A stretch of 64,000 bases of DNA from Halorhabdus rudnickae. GTDB lineage: Archaea > Halobacteriota > Halobacteria > Halobacteriales > Haloarculaceae. The notes below the pieces were generated by a model, which had not been told where the DNA came from, ran no database searches, and saw only the letters and a list, made by a program, of their open reading frames with translations. The position numbers and the translations under genes were made by a program. How positions within the stretch are numbered: position 1 is the first letter of the stretch; each line of letters starts with the position of its first letter. Positions 22,582 through 47,365 of this stretch are shown here, in pieces. The stretch lies in contig NZ_CAAHFB010000006.1 in the NCBI RefSeq assembly GCF_900880625.1, positions 186,001-250,000 on the forward strand, in the 5' to 3' direction.

Positions 22582-22656
22582 GGGTTGGTGGTCTAGGTTG
22601 GTTATGACACCTCCTTGACATGGAGGAGGTCGGCGGTTCAAATCCGCCCCAACCCA
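22582..22656 (+). tRNA. tRNA-Val (GAC)
   Basis: A full cloverleaf: 7-bp acceptor stem GGGTTGG/CCAACCC, 5-bp anticodon stem CCTCC/GGAGG around the loop TTGACAT (anticodon GAC, valine), and 5-bp T stem GGCGG/CCGCC around TTCAAAT, with discriminator A at 22656. CCA is not encoded. The 3' half is repeated near the integrase gene, showing that this tRNA is the integration target of the element now at 33.9-43.0 kb. Confidence 0.95.
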
Positions 22657-22658
22657 CT
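22623..22658 (+). repeat. attL: tRNA-Val 3' end used as integration site
   Basis: These 36 bases, from the 3' side of the anticodon stem to two bases past the discriminator, are repeated without mismatch but inverted at 33898-33933, 109 bp before the integrase gene. The inversion described under findings explains the orientation. An integrated element restores the tRNA, as seen here. Confidence 0.85.
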
Positions 22659-22884
22659 TGCGCGACGCGCATTCCTCAAGGAAACAATCCCCGAGCAGTA
22701 CTGGGGTTTTGTTCCTTTCACCGTTCTCAATTAAACTGCGGAGCAGCTTCTCTTGAGTCACCACAGGGCCGTAAAGCGATTCACTTTCAAGGAGACGCGT
22801 CAGCATCAATAAGCTACCGGTAGCTGTGTATTGAAATGGAATTATGACACACCACAGATTGGGCGAATTACACTGGGATAATCC
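22659..22884. other. Element-end remnant between tRNA-Val and IS copy 1
   Basis: No gene is seen. This is the left end of the integrative element that stayed beside the tRNA when the rest was inverted away. Besides the stem-loop at 22678-22717 it contains a perfect 14-bp palindrome agctaccggtagct at 22812-22825. The last 8 bases, gataatcc, are the target-site sequence of IS copy 1. Confidence 0.6.
22678..22717 (+). terminator. Stem-loop after tRNA-Val
   Basis: aaggaaacaatcccc and ggggttttgttcctt pair at 13 of 15 positions around a 10-base loop, 21 bp after the tRNA. It could end tRNA transcription or be an element-end structure, since it lies on the element side of the attachment site. Confidence 0.5.
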
Positions 22885-23581
22885 GGTAGTGTTCAGATAA
22901 GCTGGTTCCATGCAAATGCGAAAGATCTGAGCCAGTCGTCAGCTGTTTCCGCAGCGGCGTGACTGAAACAGTTTGAAAACGAAGATGTTCTACGTTTTAC
23001 CTCACGAAAGACACGTTCGACGCTGTTCCGATTTCCAGCGCGTTCGTATCTGAAATCGAGGCCGTGTCGGTTGCAAGCGTCTTTCAAGGAGTGCGACCCA
23101 TCGATGAGAAACATCGCGTCGTCAAGATCGTGTTTCTCGCGGAGTTCGCGAAAGAACGCGTGAGCAAGAGCTGAATTTGTAGTTGGTTCAAGCGTTGTAT
23201 GGAGCAATTCGTTTGTATCGGGATCGACGGCAGCGTACAGCCAGTATCGCTCGTTGTCGAGTCGGATCACGGTTTCGTCAACCGCAACGTGATCCGGGCT
23301 CCGTCCAGTTTCGGGCTGTAGATCGGCCTTGTGAACCCAGTTGTGGACGGTTGAACGAGCGCGTTGGACACCGAATACCTCAAGAATTGAAACAGTATTC
23401 GAAAGCGATAGTCCAGCAAGATGCAACTGAATACTGAGCTTCATCAAAAATCGCGGTGTCGCTTCTCGCTCCACAAACTCTAAGTCGATCTGGTCGATAC
23501 TACCGCTGAGGCGTGCGTTTTCGGGCATAGACACTTTGAAAACGCCACGCCTCATCCTTCAATCCTTATCTGAACACTACC
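22885..23581 (-). mobile_element. IS6-family insertion sequence, copy 1
   Basis: A 697-bp IS with perfect 17-bp terminal inverted repeats (ggtagtgttcagataag at each end) and one transposase gene. Flanks are gataatcc on the left and gactccac on the right, which are not a direct duplication. They are the reverse complements of the left and right flanks of copy 2. The copy has the same length and the same encoded protein as copy 2 at 43035-43731 but the opposite orientation. Confidence 0.92.
22893..23555 (-). CDS. IS6-family transposase, copy 1
   Basis: A 220-residue DDE transposase of the short haloarchaeal IS6 type. The N-terminal part has an HTH region (STVHNWVHKADLQPE), then DHVAVDETVIRLDNERYWLYAAVD (first Asp, D93), LIDGSHSLKDA (D152) and RNSVERVFREVKRRT with the Glu (E180) and K/R signature. 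The product is residue-for-residue the same as copy 2, so the copies are recent. It may start at the internal MPENARL nine residues in. IS6 elements transpose replicatively and make 8-bp target duplications. Confidence 0.9.
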   Translation of the reverse strand: MRRGVFKVSMPENARLSGSIDQIDLEFVEREATPRFLMKLSIQLHLAGLSLSNTVSILEVFGVQRARSTVHNWVHKADLQPETGRSPDHVAVDETVIRLDNERYWLYAAVDPDTNELLHTTLEPTTNSALAHAFFRELREKHDLDDAMFLIDGSHSLKDACNRHGLDFRYERAGNRNSVERVFREVKRRTSSFSNCFSHAAAETADDWLRSFAFAWNQLI

Positions 23582-33668: not shown

Positions 33669-33921
33669 GGATTTGAACCCCGTCCAGATCTACTCGCTTC
33701 CCTGCGCGTGTCTGCCCTGGTTCAAATCTCCTTAACCGCATTTGCCGCTCACGGATTGTTCGCACCAAAAGTGGGTTGGGGCGGATTTGAACCGCGGTCG
33801 TTCCCGTTCGCTCGCTTCACTCGCTCACCTCTCACTCCCTGTTTCAAATCGCCCCAAAGACAGATTTACGCCCCACGGTATTGTTCGGCGCAAAATCAGT
33901 GGGTTGGGGCGGATTTGAACC
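33669..33921. repeat. Array of tRNA T-arm-like fragments in alternating orientation
   Basis: Five T-arm-like cores occur at 33669-33679 (minus), 33719-33728 (plus), 33783-33793 (minus), 33841-33850 (plus) and 33911-33921 (minus), spaced 50-70 bp. The third belongs to a 25-base match to the tRNA-Val 3' end (33771-33795), and the fifth is the full attachment repeat. They look like scars of repeated integration and decay at a tRNA-Val-type site. Confidence 0.7.
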
Positions 33922-33933
33922 GCCGACCTCCTC
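33898..33933 (-). repeat. attR: 36-bp copy of the tRNA-Val 3' end
   Basis: Exact reverse complement of 22623-22658 in tRNA-Val, beside the integrase gene. Sequence composition changes here: GC-rich host to the left and lower-GC element to the right. Confidence 0.85.
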
Positions 33934-34041
33934 AGCGCCTCTCGCGTCTGCCTGCGGCAGATTCGGCGCTTCCGCGAAGTCAAGTCCGGATGAGAACCAC
34001 CACGGAATCACCATCCAGGGTCGAGCGATTCGGAAATTCCG

Positions 34042-35043
34042 ATGACTCGACAAATCACAACCGAACGCGCAGTCGAACGGTATCTGAACGAACGGCGAGC
34101 AGACATATCCGAGTCTACCTACTACAACCACTCGTCCCTGCTATCACAATTCATCGAGTGGTGTGAGAGCGAAGGTCTGGACACTGTCAACGAACTCGAT
34201 GGCTTCCACATCTCCGACTTCAAGCTCTACCGACGAGACGAGGACAATATCAACAGCGTCACGCTGTACAACCAGATGACCGTCCTTCGGGTATTCCTTC
34301 GATGGTGTGAATCCCGAGATCTGGTCGAAGGGCTTGCTGAGAACATCTTGATGCCCGTTCCCGAGGATGACTCTCGGAACACGATGATTGATTCGGAAAC
34401 GGCGGCACAGATCCTTCAGTTCCTCCAGAAGTACGAATACGGAACGCTGAAGCACGTCGTTTTCTCCCTCTTGTGGGACACCGGATTCCGCATCGGATCG
34501 CTTCGAGCAATAGACCTCGGCGACTACAACCCAGAGGAACAGTACATTGAGGTGCGCCATCGTCCAGAATCAGAAACACCGCTCAAGAACAAATACGGAG
34601 CAGAGCGTGAGATCAACCTCCACGAGTGGGTGTGCAACGTGCTTGACGACTACATTGGGATGCATAGACATGATGTGACTGACGACCACGGACGAGAACC
34701 GTTGATAACAACGAAGCAGGGCCGTCCGGTTCACTCGAATATCCGCGGCCATATTAACTCAGTAACCCGTCCGTGCGTGTACGTGGATCAGTGCCCTCAC
34801 GATAGAAGTCCAGACAGTTGCGAAGCGGCCCAACGACGTGACACCGCTCAACGATGCCCTGACTCAGTCCCACCTCACGCGATCCGGAGATCTGCGATTA
34901 CGGCGTGGCTCAACGACGGCCACACGAAGGAACTCCTCTCCGACAGGATGAACGTCTCCGTGAAGACACTGGAGAAGCACTACGACGCCCGGACGGAGAG
35001 TGAGAAGCGGGAACTACGGCGTGAGGAGTTCGGTATGGAATAG
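34042..35043 (+). CDS. Tyrosine recombinase / integrase of the element
   Basis: A 333-residue phage-type integrase. N-terminal SAM-like core-binding domain (residues 5-105, ERYLNERRADISESTYYNH), catalytic domain with Arg150 in WDTGFRIGSLRAIDL, H279-x-x-R282 in PPHAIRRSAITAWLND and the nucleophile Tyr314 in LEKHYDART. A Cys-rich insert (CVYVDQCPHDRSPDSCEAAQRR) precedes the HxxR motif, as in other haloarchaeal integrases. It lies 109 bp from attR and presumably cuts within the tRNA-Val 3' end. It is the first gene of the element when read from attR. Confidence 0.93.
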   Translation: MTRQITTERAVERYLNERRADISESTYYNHSSLLSQFIEWCESEGLDTVNELDGFHISDFKLYRRDEDNINSVTLYNQMTVLRVFLRWCESRDLVEGLAENILMPVPEDDSRNTMIDSETAAQILQFLQKYEYGTLKHVVFSLLWDTGFRIGSLRAIDLGDYNPEEQYIEVRHRPESETPLKNKYGAEREINLHEWVCNVLDDYIGMHRHDVTDDHGREPLITTKQGRPVHSNIRGHINSVTRPCVYVDQCPHDRSPDSCEAAQRRDTAQRCPDSVPPHAIRRSAITAWLNDGHTKELLSDRMNVSVKTLEKHYDARTESEKRELRREEFGME

Positions 35044-35093
35044 AAAACCTCTACAGGCATCCTTATCCGTTCTTGATTTGATTTCCCTCACGG

Positions 35094-35354
35094 ATGGTAG
35101 AAGCTCTTACAAAAGAGTGCGAACGTTGCGAGACTGAATTTGATATTGATGAGCAATATCGGGAAGTGATTGTTGTTGATCACCCCCACCCTGAGGATGC
35201 AAAAGTTGGAATGGTCCATGATGACTTGGAATACGTTCTCTGTGCCCCTTGTGCGATGGATCTCAAGGACTGGTTCCAAGCTGACGATCCAGAGGCGATC
35301 AGAGAACGTCACGCGGCATTCCCTGAAGAGGAAGTCAACTTGTTTGATCAATAG
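35094..35354 (+). CDS. Small CxxC protein of the element
   Basis: An 86-residue acidic protein with two Cys pairs, CERCETEF and LCAPCAMDL, that could bind one zinc. The rest is VIVVDHPHPEDAKVG and a Trp-containing helix KDWFQADDPEAIRERH. No family recognised. It lies 50 bp after the integrase gene in the lower-GC region. It could be a DNA-binding accessory or regulator, but nothing proves that. Confidence 0.65.
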   Translation: MVEALTKECERCETEFDIDEQYREVIVVDHPHPEDAKVGMVHDDLEYVLCAPCAMDLKDWFQADDPEAIRERHAAFPEEEVNLFDQ

Positions 35355-35534
35355 CTACCTCAACGCTGTCGGGCGGATTCCGGTATCTATTTCCGTCTGG
35401 ATGTTGTCTATACAGTGAAGGCAGATTCTCGCGGTTAGTTCTCCCGTCCAGTCGCAACTGTCGGATCCTACGAAGTTAATGCGCATTGATGGGCGTCTAC
35501 CTCACCGTCAAGAGACTTCTGCCAACATTCCACT

Positions 35535-37457
35535 ATGACTACAGATTCAATCTCCCATAGCGATGCCTACGACGAATCGACAGCTTCTCCGCACAGAGTC
35601 ACTACCAGCGAAGCCCGTGATCGACTCGAAGACACGCTCCATTCGGCACTTCGTGCAGCGGAGAATACGCTCATAGACGCGCCCACTTCACTCGGCAAGA
35701 GCCACCTTATGGCAACGACTCGTTGGAGAGACTATCCTGAAATCACCGGTGGCAATCCGGTCATCCATGTCCATCAGACCAAAGAAGCACGGAAGGATGC
35801 CGTCCAGAAAAGCCGAGATACATTTGGAGTAGAATATCACGTACTCCGAGGTCGAACTGACGCTTGTCCAGTAGCTGCCGGTGACTATGACGATGAGTTG
35901 ACCGCACCAAATGGTCGAACACCTTCCGAATGGTTCGACTGGATGTGCAACGTGCGGAATATCCCGTTCCAGAAAGCTCATCGGCGACTGAATCAACAGT
36001 ACGATCTACCCTGTGGAGAGCATTGCGACGCTGTCACCCAATGGTGGGATGTTCAGAGTGACAGTGAGGAGCTTGAGTACGACGTACTTCACGTCACAGC
36101 CAATTTCGCGAAGGTTGACGAACTCATTGATGGAGCTAACGTCATTTTTGACGAGCGTCCGGAATACAAACTGACGTTCAATGACCCTGAGCGCATGCAG
36201 TTCACTCGGGCGACAACAAACCTACTCAAACACCGGTCAGATGGCGAGTTTACGGAGGTTGATTTCAAAAAAGCCGCAATTCGTGATCAGACAGAGGAAA
36301 AAGAGAAGATTGAACAACACTTTCAGGACGAAGTCACGCAGGAATGGCTGTTCCAACGAGAAGAAACCCATCGACTCACGCCAGTTATCGGACGTGCGGT
36401 TCTTGACGCGGAAGAAATCCTTGAAGGTCGCTATCGCGGACAAGATAGCGGTATCGAGGTCGTGATAACTGACGGCGGAGAAATCCGACATGTCCAGAAT
36501 ACTCCCGATCTATCCGAAGCCCGCTGTGTGATCGGACTCGATGCGTTCCCCTCAGAACTCCGATGGAGTGTCAATACGGTGGACAACCTTACGAAGAGAG
36601 ACGTGTTGTCGCCATCTGAGCGAACCTGGTGGCGACGAAACGAACGGGGATTGATCATCAAGCAGGTTGGCACGGCAACTCGATCCTATACGTCAAGGTG
36701 GAAAGGTGCCGGCGAAAAGCGAGCGAAAGCGATCATCCAGAAGATTCGGGAGTTGCATGGGGATGACTTCCAATCCTGTGTTACATCTGACCACGTCGAA
36801 GACAATATTCGGCAGATGATGACTGCCGCGGGAATCGAGGATCCAATGACAATGCACTACGGCGAGCAAAAAAGCCGGAATGACTACTCAGACGAATCGA
36901 GTGGGGCTATCCTCGCGTCCATCGATCCCGGTGACGAGAATATCCTCGATTATCTCGCGCTCTGTGACGCTATCGCGAAGCCGAAACGAATGGTAACTGA
37001 AGGAGGAGAGATCAGTCGAGAAGTGGGACGGGAATTCGTCGGGCCTGATGCTGATATTGCGAGAGAGCTTTTGGTCTCCGTACGTGAGAGCAATTTGGCA
37101 CAAGCCGTAGGACGATATGCACGCGATCCTGACGATCCCGATTCTGGAGCAATCGTGTACGTCTGGTCAGGTGCAATTCCATCCATACTGGTTGATGAAC
37201 GGATCGAAACGACGTACCACTCGATGACGAAGAAGCGAAAACAATTCTTGAAGGTTCTAAAACAATTCCCAAAGGGGTGTTCCGCCAAAACAATCGCAGA
37301 TGAAACAGGCAGCTATAAATCAAGTGTAATCGACTGGCTCAAAGAAATGAAGAAGAGAGATAACGTACTAAAATCCGAGGGTTCGGGGTATCAGGGTGCC
37401 GACGAATGGCAGTGGTGCGGTAGTGTAACTGAAAACTATGTTGAATTCGACCAATGA
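35535..37457 (+). CDS. SF2-like helicase with possible Fe-S cysteines and C-terminal HTH
   Basis: A 640-residue protein. Walker A is DAPTSLGKSH (residues 48-57), a DEAD-like box is ANVIFDERPE (about 205), and motif VI is QAVGRYARDPDD (about 525). Between motifs I and II lie four cysteines, C111, C138, C160 and C164, a layout resembling XPD/DinG-type [4Fe-4S] helicases, followed by a stretch like VLHVTANFAKVDELI. Residues 570-610 (GCSAKTIADETGSYKSSVIDWL) form a helix-turn-helix. It is probably the replication or maintenance helicase of the element. The iteron-like repeats just downstream support this. Function is inferred. Confidence 0.72.
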   Translation: MTTDSISHSDAYDESTASPHRVTTSEARDRLEDTLHSALRAAENTLIDAPTSLGKSHLMATTRWRDYPEITGGNPVIHVHQTKEARKDAVQKSRDTFGVEYHVLRGRTDACPVAAGDYDDELTAPNGRTPSEWFDWMCNVRNIPFQKAHRRLNQQYDLPCGEHCDAVTQWWDVQSDSEELEYDVLHVTANFAKVDELIDGANVIFDERPEYKLTFNDPERMQFTRATTNLLKHRSDGEFTEVDFKKAAIRDQTEEKEKIEQHFQDEVTQEWLFQREETHRLTPVIGRAVLDAEEILEGRYRGQDSGIEVVITDGGEIRHVQNTPDLSEARCVIGLDAFPSELRWSVNTVDNLTKRDVLSPSERTWWRRNERGLIIKQVGTATRSYTSRWKGAGEKRAKAIIQKIRELHGDDFQSCVTSDHVEDNIRQMMTAAGIEDPMTMHYGEQKSRNDYSDESSGAILASIDPGDENILDYLALCDAIAKPKRMVTEGGEISREVGREFVGPDADIARELLVSVRESNLAQAVGRYARDPDDPDSGAIVYVWSGAIPSILVDERIETTYHSMTKKRKQFLKVLKQFPKGCSAKTIADETGSYKSSVIDWLKEMKKRDNVLKSEGSGYQGADEWQWCGSVTENYVEFDQ

Positions 37458-37532
37458 GGTCATTGGGTTACTCACATGATAAACTTTTATGTGGACAACC
37501 CTATGACCTACAGAGTATGAGATTGTTCTATT

Positions 37533-37565
37533 TAGGGTTTAAAACCTCAGAGGAGAGGTAAACTT
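37533..37565 (+). repeat. 33-bp direct repeat, copy 1
   Basis: Identical to 37625-37657. Each copy contains the palindrome ggtttaaaacc and is followed three bases later by gcagtat. The repeat pitch is 92 bp. Confidence 0.85.
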
Positions 37566-37624
37566 TCTGCAGTATTTTTTAAAGAGTTTAAATACTACAG
37601 CAATTTTGCGGCAGGTTTTAACTG

Positions 37625-37657
37625 TAGGGTTTAAAACCTCAGAGGAGAGGTAAACTT
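37625..37657 (+). repeat. 33-bp direct repeat, copy 2
   Basis: Second copy of the repeat at 37533-37565. Two copies with a palindromic core next to a helicase gene are suggestive of Rep-binding iterons or a regulator site. Confidence 0.85.
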
Positions 37658-38026
37658 CCCGCAGTATCTTAACTTAAGTAAGGAATAGAATAGGACGAAA
37701 ATCCAACCATCAAACGCACATATTGAGGGAACACGAGAGTCTTCAAAACCCTCTGTGCGCTGGAGTCTCCTGAGCCAATTATGGATCGTAGCTCTGACCG
37801 AATCCCCCATACACCCGCATTTAGGACACTCAAAACCCGTGAATTTCGACAGTAAAGGCAAGAAGTGGAAAACACCTGAGATTTACCGACTCGGAAATAC
37901 CTGACTCTCAGTCGGAAATTGTTCTGAGAGAGTTACCTACATTCGTAGATCGCGCGCCGACTAATGTTCCAACCGGCGGTTTCCCTTTATTGAGGACGGC
38001 GAATCTTATCCCGACTCGGAGGGTTG

Positions 38027-38248
38027 TTATGTCGAATCGTTCTCCTCTGTGCTGTTACACACGGTGTCTTGAAGCTCTGCGTAGAGATCGGGATGGTTGG
38101 CCCGGAGTATCTCAACGTCGGTCGTCAGTTCGTCCTTGATCTTACGACGGACCCGTGAGATAGCTTGATAGCGCAGATCTTCATCGACTCTTTCCTCTCC
38201 CTCGATGAGTTCTCGTTCTCGATCAGTCAACAGTGCGCGGCGTGCCAT
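38027..38248 (-). CDS. Small haloarchaeal element protein (MARRALLT family)
   Basis: A 73-residue charged helical protein starting MARRALLTDRERELIEGEERVDED, then ISRVRRKIKDELTTDVEILRANHPDLYAEL. Proteins with this start are frequent in haloarchaeal proviruses and plasmids but have no known function; they look like small DNA-binding or structural regulators. ATG 38248 is chosen over one four codons upstream because it begins the family motif. It is divergent from the SWIM gene, with a near-palindrome between them. Confidence 0.75.
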   Translation of the reverse strand: MARRALLTDRERELIEGEERVDEDLRYQAISRVRRKIKDELTTDVEILRANHPDLYAELQDTVCNSTEENDST

Positions 38249-38268
38249 GTGATTGCCCACGTACGCGG

Positions 38269-38282
38269 GTGACTTAATTCAC
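38269..38282. promoter_or_regulatory. Near-palindrome in shared divergent promoter
   Basis: gtgacttaattcac is palindromic at 12 of 14 positions and sits between the divergent genes at 38248 and 38417. Its AT core may also be the TATA element for one of them. Either gene product could bind here. Confidence 0.4.
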
Positions 38283-38332
38283 CGCATTTGGCAACGTTCC
38301 CGCATATGGGAAGTACTAAGTGGGTAGGGTCC

Positions 38333-38402
38333 GTACTGTTGAGTACGAAGCGCGGTGTCGCCATTCAGGAAATGGCCGGTGCGCCAACACCGACCGCGCT
38401 TC
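38333..38402 (+). ncRNA. Compact structured leader: hairpin plus three-way junction
   Basis: Perfectly paired elements abut each other. Hairpin gtact/agtac (38333-38346) is followed by a closing 10-bp stem gaagcgcggt/accgcgcttc (38347-38356 with 38393-38402). Inside it are hairpin gccatt/aatggc (38360-38376) and hairpin cggtg/caccg (38377-38392). Only a GTC linker and the loops are unpaired. It ends 14 bases before the SWIM start, so it would lie in that mRNA leader, but it could act as DNA or as RNA from either strand. Confidence 0.55.
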
Positions 38403-38416
38403 TGGGCTACAGAAGC

Positions 38417-38911
38417 ATGACCGAATACACTCTGACGGGTGAAAACCCCACCGACCTACCGAAGCGTGCCGTTCGCGCATTAACCGAGAAAATGACCGTC
38501 CTGCCCAACACGGGGTGGGTCAAAGACGCGGATGGCCGGTACCTCGTTATCTCGGAAAGCGGCTCTGAGTACCTTGTGGACATCCGAGAAAGCCGCTGTG
38601 ACTGTCCCGACGCTCACCACAACCTCGATGCAGAGGAACAATGCAAGCACGAACGCCGAGTCAACTACGCGACCGGCGAAACCTCCATCCCAGAATGGGC
38701 TGATCCCAGTGCGATAGACGATCAGCTCGGGACCCACACCGATTCGGACCCGGTCCGCGCGGCAACAGATGGAGGTATCACCGGAGAATCTACCGACGAC
38801 TCTCCCCCGCTCAATGCACCGGAACACTCCGACTGTGATTGCGACGATCTCCACGGAGACTTTCCTTGCGCTGACTGCTACATCGAGGGACGAAAAGAGA
38901 TGCCCGAATGA
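38417..38911 (+). CDS. SWIM zinc-finger protein
   Basis: A 164-residue protein. Residues 52-80 are a SWIM finger: YLVDIRESRCDCPDA, then EEQCKHERRV, giving C61-x-C63-x12-C76-x-H78. The C-terminus has a second cysteine cluster (SDCDCDDLHGDFPCADCYIEG). SWIM fingers bind DNA or proteins and are common in haloarchaeal mobile elements. ATG 38417 is used because the longer frame runs through the structured leader and lacks acidic bias. Confidence 0.8.
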   Translation: MTEYTLTGENPTDLPKRAVRALTEKMTVLPNTGWVKDADGRYLVISESGSEYLVDIRESRCDCPDAHHNLDAEEQCKHERRVNYATGETSIPEWADPSAIDDQLGTHTDSDPVRAATDGGITGESTDDSPPLNAPEHSDCDCDDLHGDFPCADCYIEGRKEMPE

Positions 38912-38942
38912 ATATACTATTTGAAATATGAATATGTGATCA

Positions 38943-39899
38943 TCAAGATATTCTTTGCTGTGGCTTCAAATCCTCAAGCCGGTCTTTGGCCATCTCTAAG
39001 TACTCCTCATCAACTTCCAAACTTATTGAATCTCGTCCATTTCTTGATGCCGCAATTGTGGTTGTCCCAATACCAGCAAAGGGGTCCATCACAGTATCGC
39101 CAACAAAGGAATACATTCTAATTAGACGCTCTGCTAGTTCTTCCGGATATGGGGCAGGATGATTTCCTGATTTCTCCCCTTGAATATCCGTCCATATCTG
39201 TCGAAAGAACTGATTGTGGTCATCGACCTGAATTGTGGAGAGAACTCGTTCGGCGGTAGATGGTGAACGGTATTTTCCCGGCTTACGGAATAACAGAATA
39301 TACTCTATATCATTTTTTATTACTGCTCCTGGTTCGTAGGGCTTTCCTAGGAATCTGGCATTCCCTCCTGCTTCTAATGCCGCATTCCCGATTTTTGCCC
39401 AAATTATTGGCGCTAGGTTGTCAAATCCGACACTTTTGCATTGTTCCTGAATTGAGGAATGCAACGGTAGTGCTCTGTGACGGCCTGCTTCCCGTCGTGA
39501 CTGGAGTACATCTCCCACGACTACGCACATTCTACCTCCAGGAATTAACTTATCATAACACTCTTCCCAGACATCCTCAAGCTCATCGATGAATGTTTCA
39601 TATTCATCGATCAACCCCAACTGCCCATTTTCATCATTATAGTTTTTAATATTGAAATAAGGCGGGCTTGTGACAACTAGATCTACAGAACCATCTTCGA
39701 TATCATTTAACTCTCTCGAATCTGAATTAATGAATGAATGATTTGTCGGCAGTCTATAGATGGTATTTTCTATTTCTATCATTTTCTCCCAATCTCTAGC
39801 CAATTCAGGAATCTCTGTCCTCAATTCTTGGTTATTTTTGTCCAAAAGATGACTACAAGAGTCTGGGATAAAATCCACTAACTCATCTTTTTCGACCAT
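38943..39899 (-). CDS. Beta-class DNA methyltransferase, probably m4C
   Basis: A 318-residue methyltransferase with catalytic motif IV TSPPY (residues 77-81) before the SAM-binding motif I DPFAGIGTT (about residue 270), the beta-class order. TSPPY favours N4-cytosine methylation but N6-adenine cannot be excluded. Target-recognition sequence lies between (about residues 100-250). No restriction endonuclease gene is next to it, so it appears solitary. Its GC content is low, as in the following genes. It is divergent from the small gene at 39978. Confidence 0.88.
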   Translation of the reverse strand: MVEKDELVDFIPDSCSHLLDKNNQELRTEIPELARDWEKMIEIENTIYRLPTNHSFINSDSRELNDIEDGSVDLVVTSPPYFNIKNYNDENGQLGLIDEYETFIDELEDVWEECYDKLIPGGRMCVVVGDVLQSRREAGRHRALPLHSSIQEQCKSVGFDNLAPIIWAKIGNAALEAGGNARFLGKPYEPGAVIKNDIEYILLFRKPGKYRSPSTAERVLSTIQVDDHNQFFRQIWTDIQGEKSGNHPAPYPEELAERLIRMYSFVGDTVMDPFAGIGTTTIAASRNGRDSISLEVDEEYLEMAKDRLEDLKPQQRIS

Positions 39900-39977
39900 A
39901 TTAGAAACCTATTGGCTCGAGCAAAATGCTTTTCCCTTCTCTACGTGATGGGGTCCAATGAAGGGTAATTAACACAA

Positions 39978-40202
39978 ATGATGGATGTCAACGATGATAC
40001 GTTCTTTATGGTCCAACTCCCCGAAGGTAAGACCCTCCACCAAACAAAAGAAGAAGCTATCTCACAACTCCAACAGCAGGCTGATGGATTGGAAGCAGAA
40101 TCCAGCGACGTGAATATTATTAAAGTGTCTGTTGAAGATGATGATTGGACAATAGCTGAGATGTCGTGGCAGACAATTGCTCTCCAATTGATGGGGGAAT
40201 AA
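39978..40202 (+). CDS. Small acidic protein heading the ParB-like operon
   Basis: A 74-residue acidic protein, MMDVNDDTFFMVQLPEGKTL then HQTKEEAISQLQQQADGLEAE and DDDWTIAEMSWQTIALQLMGE. It could start one codon later. The predicted alpha/beta pattern is common in small halophilic proteins and I recognise no family. It ends 3 bp before the first ParB-like gene, so it is probably co-translated. Confidence 0.6.
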   Translation: MMDVNDDTFFMVQLPEGKTLHQTKEEAISQLQQQADGLEAESSDVNIIKVSVEDDDWTIAEMSWQTIALQLMGE

Positions 40203-40205
40203 TCT

Positions 40206-41060
40206 ATGGAAGTACAGCAAATTGATCCAAATGAATTAGAGATCGATCCTGTAAACGAAAGGAAGGAAAATATCGGGCCCGATAAAGATGATAATTCACT
40301 GGAAGAAAGCATTCGAGAGCAAGGCGTAATCCAGCCCCCTGTTGCACGTCTGGAAGGTGAAAATTATAAAATCGTAGTTGGTCAACGACGAACACTTGCC
40401 GCACAGAATGTCGGTGTGGAATCGATTCCAGTGATCATTATGGACTGGGATGATTCGGACGCTCTCGCGGCAAGTGTAACAGAGAACGTTGACGCTTTCC
40501 GAAAATCTGTATCGAGGACAGACCGTGCTGCGGCAGTCCAAAGATTGATGGAAGTGAACGATTGGAATGCAAATGACGTTGCTGAGGAATTAGGAGTTAA
40601 TCCTAGCACCGTACGGGAATGGCTGGAACGCACAAACCCTGAGTGGGAAGACACTGTTGTCCATGTTAATGGAGCAGATGAAGCTCCAGACGAAATTCGC
40701 GAATCAGTCGATGAGGTCGATGACAAACAGTTAGCGAGTATTCGCGCAAATACTGAGTCAAAAGAAGAGCGAGAAGAGATTGTTAAAACGCTGTCGCAAT
40801 CTGACCTTAGTCAGCGTGATGTGCTTGAGGCAACAAAGCAGGCACGTCGTGATGAGGAGACGGATTTGAAAGAAGTCATCAAGGAGATGAATAGTCAGAA
40901 ATCGGACAGTGAGGGTGAAATTAGGGTCCGCACAAGGGTCACGTTTACTGGAAATCAAGCTGACGGACTGAAAGACGCTGCGAAGGATCTAGGAACATCT
41001 GAAGAGGAGGTAGTTCGAAACGCCATTCAAGAATATCTTAAGTCGAATGGATACGTGTAG
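40206..41060 (+). CDS. ParB-like protein 1 with C-terminal ribbon-helix-helix-like domain
   Basis: A 284-residue protein. Residues 5-95 are a ParB N-terminal (CTP-switch) domain with SIREQGVIQPPVAR and VVGQRRTLAAQNVG, where GQRR (59-62) matches the GxRR box. Residues 110-140 are a helix-turn-helix (NDVAEELGVNPSTVREWLERT). Residues 240-284 (VTFTGNQADGLKDAAKDLGTSEEEVVRNAIQEYL) resemble a ribbon-helix-helix DNA-binding domain. No ParA ATPase gene is present nearby. It probably binds element DNA for partition or regulation. Confidence 0.8.
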   Translation: MEVQQIDPNELEIDPVNERKENIGPDKDDNSLEESIREQGVIQPPVARLEGENYKIVVGQRRTLAAQNVGVESIPVIIMDWDDSDALAASVTENVDAFRKSVSRTDRAAAVQRLMEVNDWNANDVAEELGVNPSTVREWLERTNPEWEDTVVHVNGADEAPDEIRESVDEVDDKQLASIRANTESKEEREEIVKTLSQSDLSQRDVLEATKQARRDEETDLKEVIKEMNSQKSDSEGEIRVRTRVTFTGNQADGLKDAAKDLGTSEEEVVRNAIQEYLKSNGYV

Positions 41061-41128
41061 TTTTACTAACTTACCCGAAATTTAAATTATCTTCGCGTTA
41101 TACTCTCTTCTGGAGTGAATAATAACTT

Positions 41129-42031
41129 ATGAGCTCAACTTCATTTGACATTGCGAACATAGTTCGCCAAAATTTCATCGATGAGCAGGGTCCACAGGCA
41201 AGTCGAAAATTCGTAGCATACTCTTCAACTTATGGTCTGAGGGTTGCTATGGGCTGGATTGATAAGCCAGATAATATTCAAGAACTCAATGCAGAACGCC
41301 GGGAGATAAACGATGAAACAGATGTCTCTTCTGTAGCTCAATCTCCTGCTTCAGATGTTATGGAGGCGGTCAAGCTTGAGGGAGTTCGTGTGTCTGTCAA
41401 ATATGACCGTGCAGAGCAACAAGGAGATCCGCTACCCTGGTCCGATATTCGACCGTTACTCGATCAACCTGAGACTGTTTATGATCTTCCTATCCAGAGA
41501 ATTGTAGTTAGATTTGAAGATGAAGAGTTCAAGCAAATGTGGATCGACAAGCTCGATGATGCTATAGATGATCCCAACTTCCCAACTAGTTGGGTTGAGC
41601 CTCCTTTTTACGCTGTTTTAGAAACTGGCATTCCTGACAATGATGCCCGTCAAAAAGTAAAGAATGACCATGAAAATCGGTATTTCATGCCCAAATCCAA
41701 TACAACATCTAATGGGAAGCCAGGTCTGGGATGGTCGCCTAGGATTCTCGATCTTGATAGTATTTGGTCACACCGGGGCTGGACGGAAAGATCCGATCCT
41801 CAGTTAGAGGCTTGGTCTGACCGACAAAGTGGGGGGAACTGGACCCCACACAGGCTTGAACAGCGTCTTATGAATTTCTTCGAACCGGAAGAACAGTATA
41901 CTGGCATGATACGAGATAGCGCCCTCATGAACCGGTGGAGAGACGTTATGACTAACAGCCAGAACCACGATTATACCTCGTTTAAAACATTTGAATGGGA
42001 CGACGAAGAGGAGTGGATGCTGCAGAATTAA
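41129..42031 (+). CDS. Unknown 300-residue protein between two ParB-like genes
   Basis: A 300-residue soluble acidic protein with many Trp (WIDKPDNIQEL, SWVEPPFYAVLETGIPD, GWSPRILDLDSIWSHRGWTE, FEWDDEEEWML). There are no Walker, zinc or nuclease motifs I can name and no membrane segments. It is preceded by an AT-rich gap that may hold a promoter (41061-41128) and followed, 6 bp later, by the second ParB-like gene. Being enclosed by two ParB-like genes, it may be their partner, but this is inference. Confidence 0.75.
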   Translation: MSSTSFDIANIVRQNFIDEQGPQASRKFVAYSSTYGLRVAMGWIDKPDNIQELNAERREINDETDVSSVAQSPASDVMEAVKLEGVRVSVKYDRAEQQGDPLPWSDIRPLLDQPETVYDLPIQRIVVRFEDEEFKQMWIDKLDDAIDDPNFPTSWVEPPFYAVLETGIPDNDARQKVKNDHENRYFMPKSNTTSNGKPGLGWSPRILDLDSIWSHRGWTERSDPQLEAWSDRQSGGNWTPHRLEQRLMNFFEPEEQYTGMIRDSALMNRWRDVMTNSQNHDYTSFKTFEWDDEEEWMLQN

Positions 42032-42037
42032 TTTCGT

Positions 42038-43015
42038 ATGAACGATTTAGGTAGCAAAAAATTCGATCCAGATGAACTGGTTATTGATCCAGTAAATGAA
42101 CGGGTATCAAATACAGGCTTTCATTCAGAACAAGATGAAGCTTTTCTGAAAAGCATAAGGGAGAATGGAGTACTTAATCCTATTGTAGTTCGTGAAGTTG
42201 ATGGAGAATATCGGGTAGTAGCCGGACAAAGACGAACGTTAGCGGCACAACAGGTAGGTCTCGATGAAATAAGAGCAAATATTCGAGATCTGGATGATAA
42301 AGAAGCTAGGCTTTTGTCAATTACAGAAAATGCGGACGAATATCAAAAGGATGTGCCACCTGGTGATCGGGCTAAAACCATTAAAAAACTTATAGATGAT
42401 GGGGTCGATATCTCTCAAATAGCTCGTCAAATGGGTTGCTCTCAGCCAACAGTCGAAAGATGGCTCGAACCTGCTCGCGACTATTGGGAAGATACAGAGT
42501 TCGAACCGGACCCAGATCAGGAGGAGGAGGAGGAGGAGGAGTCTCTACTTGACGAGCTTTCTTTAACTTCAATGCGGTTGATCAGGGAAGCAACTGATGG
42601 TAGCGATCAAGCCGAGAAAATTGCAAAGAAGATTATCAAAAACAATGTAAAAGTAGAGTTAGTGAGAGAAGCACATTCTGTTGCAGACACCCCTATTGAA
42701 TTTGGAGAAGAAATATCAAAAATAATTGAAAAACTAAATTCAAATGTCCAAACAATCAACGAGAAGATTACTTTTTCGGGCGATGAGGCTGAGAAGCTTG
42801 ATGAGGTCATGAAAGACAGAGGTGTGCACGAAAGAGAAGCTATCAAAATGTTGGTCAGAGAACGATTGAAAAAAATCTCAAGCTCCAAAGATGGCGAACT
42901 CATCGAATTCCATTTACCGAAGGGACCCTCCGAAAAGGCCAAAGAGTTGACTTCTGGGAGCGATGTCTCAGTAAATGTTCTATGCCGGAAGATTGTTGAA
43001 GATCGGCTAAATTAA
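42038..43015 (+). CDS. ParB-like protein 2 with two ribbon-helix-helix-like domains
   Basis: A 325-residue paralogue of the first ParB-like protein: FDPDELVIDPVNERVSNTG, then SIRENGVLNPIVVRE and VVAGQRRTLAAQQVG (GQRR at 63-66), HTH ISQIARQMGCSQPTVERWL, and an acidic run of glutamates (gag repeat at about 42520-42541). The C-terminus has two RHH-like segments, ITFSGDEAEKLDEVMKDRGV and IEFHLPKGPSEKAKELTSG. It is more diverged and lower in GC than host genes. It ends 19 bp before IS copy 2, whose insertion did not cut it. Confidence 0.8.
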   Translation: MNDLGSKKFDPDELVIDPVNERVSNTGFHSEQDEAFLKSIRENGVLNPIVVREVDGEYRVVAGQRRTLAAQQVGLDEIRANIRDLDDKEARLLSITENADEYQKDVPPGDRAKTIKKLIDDGVDISQIARQMGCSQPTVERWLEPARDYWEDTEFEPDPDQEEEEEEESLLDELSLTSMRLIREATDGSDQAEKIAKKIIKNNVKVELVREAHSVADTPIEFGEEISKIIEKLNSNVQTINEKITFSGDEAEKLDEVMKDRGVHEREAIKMLVRERLKKISSSKDGELIEFHLPKGPSEKAKELTSGSDVSVNVLCRKIVEDRLN

Positions 43016-43034
43016 GTTTGCTCTCTGGATTATC

Positions 43035-43731
43035 GGTAGTGTTCAGATAAGGATTGAAGGATGAGGCGTGGCGTTTTCAAAGTGTCTATGCCCGAAAACG
43101 CACGCCTCAGCGGTAGTATCGACCAGATCGACTTAGAGTTTGTGGAGCGAGAAGCGACACCGCGATTTTTGATGAAGCTCAGTATTCAGTTGCATCTTGC
43201 TGGACTATCGCTTTCGAATACTGTTTCAATTCTTGAGGTATTCGGTGTCCAACGCGCTCGTTCAACCGTCCACAACTGGGTTCACAAGGCCGATCTACAG
43301 CCCGAAACTGGACGGAGCCCGGATCACGTTGCGGTTGACGAAACCGTGATCCGACTCGACAACGAGCGATACTGGCTGTACGCTGCCGTCGATCCCGATA
43401 CAAACGAATTGCTCCATACAACGCTTGAACCAACTACAAATTCAGCTCTTGCTCACGCGTTCTTTCGCGAACTCCGCGAGAAACACGATCTTGACGACGC
43501 GATGTTTCTCATCGATGGGTCGCACTCCTTGAAAGACGCTTGCAACCGACACGGCCTCGATTTCAGATACGAACGCGCTGGAAATCGGAACAGCGTCGAA
43601 CGTGTCTTTCGTGAGGTAAAACGTAGAACATCTTCGTTTTCAAACTGTTTCAGTCACGCCGCTGCGGAAACAGCTGACGACTGGCTCAGATCTTTCGCAT
43701 TTGCATGGAACCAGCTTATCTGAACACTACC
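43035..43731 (+). mobile_element. IS6-family insertion sequence, copy 2
   Basis: A 697-bp copy with the same 17-bp terminal repeats and transposase as copy 1, opposite orientation. Flanks are ggattatc (left) and gtggagtc (right). They are the reverse complements of the left and right flanks of copy 1. Confidence 0.92.
43061..43723 (+). CDS. IS6-family transposase, copy 2
   Basis: Encodes the same 220-residue DDE transposase as copy 1 (D93, D152, E180 positions), on the opposite strand. Its ATG is 26 bp inside the left terminal repeat start. Both copies are intact, so both could still be active. Confidence 0.9.
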   Translation: MRRGVFKVSMPENARLSGSIDQIDLEFVEREATPRFLMKLSIQLHLAGLSLSNTVSILEVFGVQRARSTVHNWVHKADLQPETGRSPDHVAVDETVIRLDNERYWLYAAVDPDTNELLHTTLEPTTNSALAHAFFRELREKHDLDDAMFLIDGSHSLKDACNRHGLDFRYERAGNRNSVERVFREVKRRTSSFSNCFSHAAAETADDWLRSFAFAWNQLI

Positions 43732-46798: not shown

Positions 46799-46861
46799 CA
46801 GACGATGCGACGGGGCTCAGCCGTCAGAACGCTTAAGTCCCGACTCGCCAGATGTGAACAC

Positions 46862-47365
46862 ATGACGTCGGGTGTTCCTGGGAGCGAGACCGAGACGGAC
46901 GTCAGCGTCAGGGCAGAGATCATCGACGATCGAACGGTGATCGTCGTCGACGGCACAACAGACGTCGCGGTCGTCGTCAACTCGGCGTCGGGCGAGCGCG
47001 TCTACCTGCCGCCCGAGAAAGCGGTGAGTGACACTGATTCGCGATCGGACGAACGAGAGGACAGTCCTTACGAGGGAGTCCCCAGCGACAGTCCCTACGA
47101 GGGCCTTCAGGACGACAGTCCCTACGAAGGGATACCGGGCGACAGCCCCTACGAAGGGATACCGAGCGACAGCCCCTACGAAGGAGTTCCCAGCGACAGC
47201 CCCTACGAGGGGAATCAGGGAGACAGTCCCTACGAAGGTGTTCCGAGCGACAGCCCCTACGAGTCGGGCCACACGCCGGAGACCACCTTCGGCGTCGTCC
47301 CGACCGAAGACGGTTTCCGGATCGTCCACCCCGAACCGGCGAGTGACGTCCGATTCCTGCGTTGA
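46862..47365 (+). CDS. Repeat protein with DSPYEG units
   Basis: A 167-residue protein. The N-terminal 50 residues form strands (VRAEIIDDRTVIVVDGTTDVAVVVNSASGERVYLPP); residues 67-135 consist of seven 9-residue units DSPYEG(V/L/I/N)(P/Q)(S/D/G) and a partial eighth; the tail has GVVPTEDGFRIVHPEP. The Tyr-rich acidic repeats suggest a multivalent binding or interaction surface. ATG 46862 is chosen as the start with acidic bias. I recall similar DSPY repeats in a haloarchaeal DUF without known role. Confidence 0.75.
   Translation: MTSGVPGSETETDVSVRAEIIDDRTVIVVDGTTDVAVVVNSASGERVYLPPEKAVSDTDSRSDEREDSPYEGVPSDSPYEGLQDDSPYEGIPGDSPYEGIPSDSPYEGVPSDSPYEGNQGDSPYEGVPSDSPYESGHTPETTFGVVPTEDGFRIVHPEPASDVRFLR
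47060..47263 (+). repeat. 27-bp coding tandem repeat
   Basis: Seven complete 27-bp units and a part unit, encoding DSPYEG-x-x-x. Codons differ between units (agt/agc, cct/ccc), so the array is not brand new. Confidence 0.9.

What the first reader, a model, noticed from the sequence alone, without database searches (positions are those of the whole stretch)
39978..43015. Operon of two ParB-like proteins around an unknown protein, without ParA
The genes are: small acidic protein, ParB-like 1, an unknown 300-residue Trp-rich protein, ParB-like 2. Both ParB-like proteins keep the GQRR motif of the CTP-switch domain and an HTH, but end in one or two ribbon-helix-helix-like domains in place of the usual ParB dimer domain. 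No ParA ATPase is in the element. Two CTP-switch clamps plus a common unknown partner could be a novel partition, silencing or defence system. A DNA methyltransferase gene lies next door, divergently.
Basis: partly seen in the sequence, partly recalled or inferred. Interest (0 to 1): 0.65.

Follow-up and report, generated by a model that had tools for sequence, protein, structure and literature searches.

The report
Mobile archaeal ParB-clamp operon beside restriction genes
In salt-loving archaea, a rare mobile operon joins two ParB-like DNA-clamp proteins to a protein of unknown kind, carries no ParA motor, and nearly always sits next to DNA-cutting or DNA-methylating genes, so it looks more like a weapon or control unit of mobile DNA than a partition system.

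Summary
The four genes are real, at the stated coordinates, under strong purifying selection. Both ParB-like proteins carry a ParB N-domain (GQRR), an HTH and a C-terminal ribbon-helix-helix. The 300-aa protein (here U300) matches no family in five libraries. U300 was found in 8 genomes of a 392-genome order sample; ParB1 (E<=1e-25) in the same 8 of 384. Eight of nine loci (8 genomes plus a plasmid) keep the four-gene order; a provirus lacks ParB2. No ParA gene or ParA-binding motif was found beside any of them. Homes: tRNA-integrated ~9-kb elements, a plasmid, chromosomal cassettes, a provirus. In 8 of 9 loci the adjoining gene is a methyltransferase or a known or motif-inferred nuclease; in two the operon lies between the two genes of a type II restriction-modification pair. 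The linked methyltransferases are not one clade (AU p 8e-6), so the pairing arose repeatedly or was renewed by recombination. Best reading, inferred: a ParA-free, KorB-like nucleotide-gated clamp module serving restriction and conflict functions of mobile DNA. Motorless partition and transcriptional control remain open; U300's fold and the nucleotide bound are unknown.

The parts
39978..40202 (+). small acidic protein, 74 aa, first gene of the operon
   Evidence: homologue in all 9 loci (48-96% identity); no significant Pfam or PDB match
40206..41060 (+). ParB1: ParB_N + HTH + C-terminal RHH
41129..42031 (+). U300: 300-aa protein of unknown family
42038..43015 (+). ParB2: ParB_N + HTH + RHH-like + second C-terminal segment
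38943..39899 (-). DNA methyltransferase (N6_N4_Mtase), divergent; same family as type II RM methyltransferases elsewhere
38288..38911 (+). 207-aa accessory protein of the element (possible SWIM zinc finger, weak)
   Evidence: E 0.075; phrog_17897 2.5e-34
38027..38260 (-). 77-aa element protein (phrog_26393)
35535..37457 (+). 640-aa protein, presumably replication/helicase-like (phrog_27506; weak DinG-type hit)
34042..35043 (+). tyrosine integrase of the element
   Evidence: Phage_integrase 6.3e-7; 98% identity to the one in the G071 element
33898..33933 (-). 36-bp att copy (tRNA-Val 3' end), integrase-side end of the element
22582..22657 (+). tRNA-Val, intact att site; original insertion site
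22658..22884 (+). other end of the element, separated from the rest by an IS6-mediated inversion
   Evidence: 22527-22840 matches L013 8175-8490 at 92%
22885..23581 (-). IS6-family insertion sequence, copy 1 (inverted relative to copy 2)
43035..43731 (+). IS6-family insertion sequence, copy 2; transposase 43061-43723

Best explanation
A mobile, ParA-free ParB-clamp module that serves the restriction and conflict functions of the DNA carrying it. Proposed mechanism: ParB1 and ParB2 dimerise through their RHH C-domains, the HTH binds a specific site, nucleotide binding at the GQRR pocket closes the N-domains round DNA, and the clamp slides. U300, with the small protein, is the dedicated partner that locks or uses the clamps (as KorA locks KorB), silencing or exposing the coated DNA while an interchangeable neighbouring nuclease or methyltransferase supplies cutting or self-marking. 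Shown: gene content, conserved order, obligate pairing of U300 with ParB1, ParB fold, absence of ParA, mobile contexts, recurrent pairing with RM or nuclease genes. Inferred: nucleotide binding, sliding, any U300-clamp contact, and the link to restriction in action.
For: Same 8 genomes carry U300 and ParB1. Same gene order in 8 of 9 loci. Adjoining gene is a methyltransferase or a known or motif-inferred nuclease in 8 of 9 loci. In XH8 and G188 the operon sits between REase and MTase genes; the ends of ParB2 and MTase are 1 bp apart or overlap 17 bp. In G001 a PDC-M57B protein (PADLOC, 2.8e-70) starts 15 bp after parB2 on the same strand. MTase present in 4 of 8 U300 genomes against 16 of 376 others, Fisher p 3.3e-4, adjoining in all 4. 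Operon-linked MTases are not one clade: AU p 8.4e-6 for five, 2.5e-6 for XH8+G188, whose operons are sisters. ParB1 core matches ParB, Noc and KorB structures. In G001/G022 no integrase or replication gene was recognised within the 20 kb read (partly annotated), hard to square with a partition role.
Against: The link to nucleases is by neighbourhood only. 16 of 20 MTase genomes have no U300, and homologues of the G001 and G261 nucleases occur in plasmids without the operon (7 of the 20 records were read), so the neighbours may be independent defence cargo. The provirus has no adjoining nuclease. U300 and the small protein have no defence-family hit. Three nuclease assignments (G261, G216, XH8/G188) rest on motifs read by eye, without a Pfam or PADLOC hit. 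Recombination of whole RM genes could mimic repeated pairing.
Confidence: 0.4

Rival explanations
1. Motorless partition or maintenance: the ParB pair tethers the excised, replicating element to host DNA, with U300 as bridge and the RHH as second DNA-binding domain, without its own ParA (compare StbA of plasmid R388, PMC3098194, start of abstract seen in the listing; that it works without a motor is recalled).
For: ParB fold and HTH; carried by integrative elements, a plasmid and a provirus; at the element end away from the integrase gene in G071 and G216.
Against: No ParA-binding motif in 9 ParB1 + 8 ParB2; no repeated parS-like palindrome found in a crude scan; G001/G022 copies with no recognised replication or integrase gene within 20 kb; recurrent nuclease/MTase neighbours unexplained.
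Confidence: 0.25
2. Transcription control: the ParBs are KorB-like repressors or VirB-like activators of element and RM genes, with U300 as co-regulator.
For: Shares a divergent intergenic region with the MTase in the window and G071 (78 bp) and with the REase in XH8 (153 bp) and G188 (about 144 bp if the REase starts where its homologues do); KorB-KorA complex among the top fold matches; ParB-type CTP-switch regulators are known (PMC11790492 abstract; PMC10770331 start of abstract).
Against: In G216 the MTase lies at the other, convergent end and the operon start faces the tRNA; G261, G022, G001 have no RM gene divergent from the operon; four conserved genes are many for one control circuit.
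Confidence: 0.22
3. Bystander: the operon has an unrelated function and lies beside RM genes only because both are cargo of the same mobile elements.
For: The neighbours also live alone; RM and nuclease genes are common mobile cargo (general knowledge).
Against: Adjoining position in 8 of 9 loci, place exactly between R and M genes twice, and at least 4 state changes on the MTase tree.
Confidence: 0.13

Closest known systems
KorB-KorA of plasmid RK2 (PMC11790492, abstract and outline read)
   Same: ParB-family clamp acting with a separate partner protein in gene silencing on mobile DNA; KorB chains among the best fold matches
   Different: Two ParB paralogues; C-terminal RHH; partner U300 has no detected relation to KorA; archaeal; beside RM genes
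Orphan ParB-CTPase-fold proteins on mobile elements (PMC12704722; abstract, outline and search passages read)
   Same: ParB fold outside parAB operons, on mobile DNA, in archaea rarely near ParA
   Different: The survey's main text holds no 'ribbon-helix-helix' or 'RHH'; no operon of two ParBs round a shared unknown protein was seen in the passages read
Type II restriction-modification pairs of haloarchaea
   Same: Neighbour MTase belongs to a family that, in 16 genomes without the operon, has one REase family adjoining in 9 and an XhoI-like protein in 2 (by eye)
   Different: No REase recognised in the window element; the ParB operon is not part of ordinary RM pairs (no parB, U300 or small-protein match in L067-L082)
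Archaeal SegAB (SegB RHH; recalled) and pNOB8 ParB (5k5a/5k5d)
   Same: RHH or ParB-N domain in archaeal segregation proteins
   Different: No SegA/ParA partner here; RHH is fused to a ParB_N-HTH protein

Membership tests
ParABS partition system | ParB_N CTPase-type domain plus HTH | tested here: met
ParABS partition system | parA in the operon or nearby | tested here: not met
   no ParA-type Walker motif in the window or in nine loci of about 20 kb; in none of 8 genomes is an AAA_31 match listed within 13 kb of the operon (nearest 13.6 kb, G261; about 28-29 kb in G022 and G000)
ParABS partition system | ParA-binding motif in ParB | tested here: not met
   0 of 17 proteins with [LFI]G[KR]G[LFI] (motif from PMC12704722)
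ParABS partition system | parS-like repeated palindromes | tested here: inconclusive
   no shared repeated palindrome within 1 kb of the operons; scan too crude to exclude
ParABS partition system | canonical ParB C-terminal dimerisation domain (PF23552) | tested here: not met
   not among the ParB1 or ParB2 Pfam hits at E<=1 (best 25 of 26 shown for ParB1, 24 of 24 for ParB2); RHH there instead
KorB-KorA-type clamp and lock | ParB-type clamp fold resembling KorB | tested here: met
   8qa9_A Z 11.8, 190 aligned, rmsd 6.6
KorB-KorA-type clamp and lock | separate clamp-locking repressor | tested here: inconclusive
   U300 model too poor; no sequence relative
Type II RM system | cognate REase with MTase | tested here: inconclusive
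   MTase only in the window; REase in XH8 and G188; whether U300 cuts DNA is unknown
Known anti-phage defence system (PADLOC) | core proteins match PADLOC models | tested here: not met
   U300 and small protein no significant hit; ParBs only weak hits over ParB or HTH regions
CTP switch | CTP binding and hydrolysis | not testable with these tools
   GQRR and EN invariant; specificity not predictable from sequence (PMC12704722, section title)

The most novel reading that the evidence does not exclude
A new archaeal conflict system in which paired ParB-RHH nucleotide-switch clamps and a new protein family (U300) patrol DNA and recruit or license interchangeable nucleases and methyltransferases: a restriction machine driven by sliding clamps.
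Probability: 0.25. Interest if true: 0.85.

Novelty: new variant of a known kind. Interest (0 to 1): 0.55.

Why it matters
It gives a tractable case of ParB-fold clamps without ParA in archaea, where the fold's role is largely open, with a constant unknown partner and recurrent restriction partners. If the clamps work with restriction enzymes, nucleotide-gated sliding clamps would enter the list of mechanisms by which cells or mobile elements police DNA.

Tried and rejected
U300 fold: the AF2 model (5 sequences) has mean pLDDT 42.8 and PDB search gave nothing better than E 3.4; no fold is claimed. U300 against ParB1 profiles: no relation. Weak profile hits of U300 to PDB chains (E 0.13 and worse) and of its homologues to Pfam/PHROG (E 0.02 and worse) were taken as chance. 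The G408 match (L020) scores 10.4 bits against a best of 9.3 in 2000 shuffles; not counted as a homologue. Viral contigs gave one relative, the G149 provirus itself; phage records none. CTCGAG near the window promoter is kept in G071 but not in other loci. A palindrome inside parB1 follows from conserved amino acids; its codons are not conserved. PDB hits of the RHH segment include unrelated annexins, so the RHH claim rests on Pfam, the model and the pattern. The VIA-align rows barely test residues past 234, so the RHH was not tested there. The clade test was named after the tree was seen. Paper searches that listed no description of this operon: (open-access PMC only; listings, with two papers opened in part). 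A search for the name PDC-M57 found no paper.

Full report
Check of the observation. The four ORFs are where the finding puts them, co-directional with gaps of 3, 68 and 6 bp; the methyltransferase is divergent, 78 bp from the small gene. Both ParB-like proteins have ParB_N (5e-16, 3.3e-17) and HTH domains, TIGR00180 hits over the cut-off and solved relatives (ParB, Noc, Spo0J). The ParB1 model (pLDDT 75.9) aligns best with ParB chains bound to CTPgammaS or CDP, Noc and KorB (Z 13.8 to 11). Its C-terminus is RHH: Pfam RHH_1 in 6 of 9 ParB1 C-termini, best 7.5e-6, the window's at 0.0081. ParB2 has an extra C-terminal segment in 4 of 8 loci. The four genes evolve under constraint: dN/dS between the window and G071 is 0.054, 0.058, 0.088 and 0.134.

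U300 and its obligate partners. U300 has no significant family, PDB or fold match. In the order, 9 of 392 genomes matched at E<=1e-3; one (G408) is near shuffle level, leaving 8. A second sample by profile over the class gave 7 of 391, all among those 8; G261 was not listed there. ParB1 at E<=1e-25 was found in 8 of 384, the same 8. A ninth locus lies on the 337-kb plasmid of Haloferacaceae archaeon XH8. All 9 loci have small-ParB1-U300; 8 have ParB2 next; the provirus of G149 (57.8-kb IMG/VR contig; L019 = L024) lacks it. In 6 of 8 genomes the two operon proteins are the only ParB_N matches (G022 and G149 have others). No ParA-type Walker motif lies in the window or the nine loci read and no ParB carries the ParA-binding motif (0 of 17). 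AAA_31 proteins exist elsewhere in all 8 genomes; none is listed within 13 kb of an operon (nearest G261, 13.6 kb; G000, about 29 kb). G149 has a separate ParA-like gene close to another ParB_N gene on another contig.

The carrier. In G071 the element is inserted in tRNA-Val, with a 36-bp stretch at the tRNA end and a second, imperfect copy 9.3 kb away; in G216 likewise in a tRNA-Val (37-bp repeat, 95%, 9.6 kb). The operon is at one end and the integrase at the other. In the window the element is cut in two: the att copy and body run from 33898 to 43034, while the other end is still joined to tRNA-Val at 22582-22884. Two IS6 copies in opposite orientation flank the inverted 20 kb, with target duplications in inverted order: an IS6-mediated inversion. 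The integrase is 98% identical between the two elements but the long replication-type protein differs (640 against 557 aa), so the parts recombine. In G001 and G022 the operon sits in a chromosomal setting near an IF-2-like gene, with no integrase or replication gene recognised in 20 kb (annotation there was partial), and is more alike (89%) than its shared flank (81%).

The neighbours. Adjoining the operon are: the MTase (window, G071, G216, G188, XH8); a REase-type gene divergently upstream (XH8, G188); a 262-aa protein with a PD-(D/E)XK-like EVDVK motif (G261); a PDC-M57B protein 15 bp downstream (G001; broken into frames in G022). That is 8 of 9 loci; the provirus is the exception. The motifs were read by eye; Pfam and PADLOC did not recognise the three PD-(D/E)XK-like families. 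The MTase was found in 20 of 384 genomes at E<=1e-50: 4 with U300, adjoining in all 4; 16 without, of which 9 have the same REase family adjoining and 2 an XhoI-like protein (by eye). So this MTase comes from ordinary type II RM pairs. In XH8 and G188 the ParB operon lies exactly between the REase and the MTase, antiparallel to both. Fisher's test gives p 3.3e-4 for MTase with U300. On the tree of 21 MTases (all 20 genomes plus XH8) the operon-linked ones fall in four places (4 changes), and holding them together is rejected (AU 8.4e-6), as it is for XH8 with G188 (2.5e-6), although their U300 genes are sisters at 100/100. The operon was therefore joined to members of this RM family repeatedly, or the RM genes beside it were replaced by recombination; either way the pairing was kept. 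The test was chosen after seeing the tree. Against a fixed partnership: the nuclease families of G001 and G261 have plasmid homologues (9 and 11 records), and in the seven of these records that I read no ParB-type gene is annotated in the stretch shown.

How it may work. ParB-family clamps without ParA are known to act as regulators: KorB slides and is locked by KorA to silence promoters (PMC11790492, abstract), and VirB uses a CTP switch to activate genes (PMC10770331, start of abstract in the listing). A 2025 survey (PMC12704722; abstract, outline, passages) reports many orphan ParB-fold proteins on mobile DNA, archaeal cases rarely near ParA, and binding of CTP, ATP or GTP. By analogy I propose that ParB1 and ParB2 are nucleotide-gated clamps and that U300 plus the small protein is their lock or effector, acting together with interchangeable DNA-cutting or methylating partners in conflict between mobile elements and viruses (0.40). 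Motorless maintenance (0.25), transcription control (0.22) and a bystander role (0.13) remain. No experiment or structure shows contact between U300 and the ParBs, nucleotide binding, or an effect on restriction.

Novelty. Orphan ParB-like genes on mobile DNA are a known kind. The combination of two ParB-RHH proteins, a small acidic protein and U300 was not seen in the papers searched (open-access PMC only). I rate it a new variant of a known kind, with a bolder reading open.

Noticed in passing
window 22582-43731: An integrated element split by an IS6-mediated 20-kb inversion: inverted IS6 copies at 22885-23581 and 43035-43731 with 8-bp target duplications in inverted order.
   Followed up: yes
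L068 4192-4968, L075 6049-6828: The same MTase family is paired with a different, XhoI-like REase (by eye) in two genomes, so one MTase family serves at least two REase families.
   Followed up: partly
L071, L077: In two genomes read the MTase stands without a recognised REase next to what look like succinyl-CoA ligase genes (by eye); they group with two more genomes on the tree.
   Followed up: no
window 46805-47365: 186-aa ORF with several tandem copies of a DSPYEG-type repeat.
   Followed up: no
L020 5675-16183 (G408): A cluster of HATPase, McrB-like AAA, a 479-aa protein with a PD-(D/E)XK-like motif (by eye), ResIII helicase and SMC-like protein; the 479-aa protein has a borderline 46-residue match to U300.
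   Followed up: partly
window 35535-37457 against L013 14130-15803: Two elements with 98% identical integrases and a 90% identical MTase-operon region carry different long replication-type proteins (640 and 557 aa).
   Followed up: no
L014 5240-6028: A homologue (80%) of the PD-(D/E)XK-like 262-aa protein of G261 lies near the operon in G188 too, beyond the MTase and integrase.
   Followed up: no
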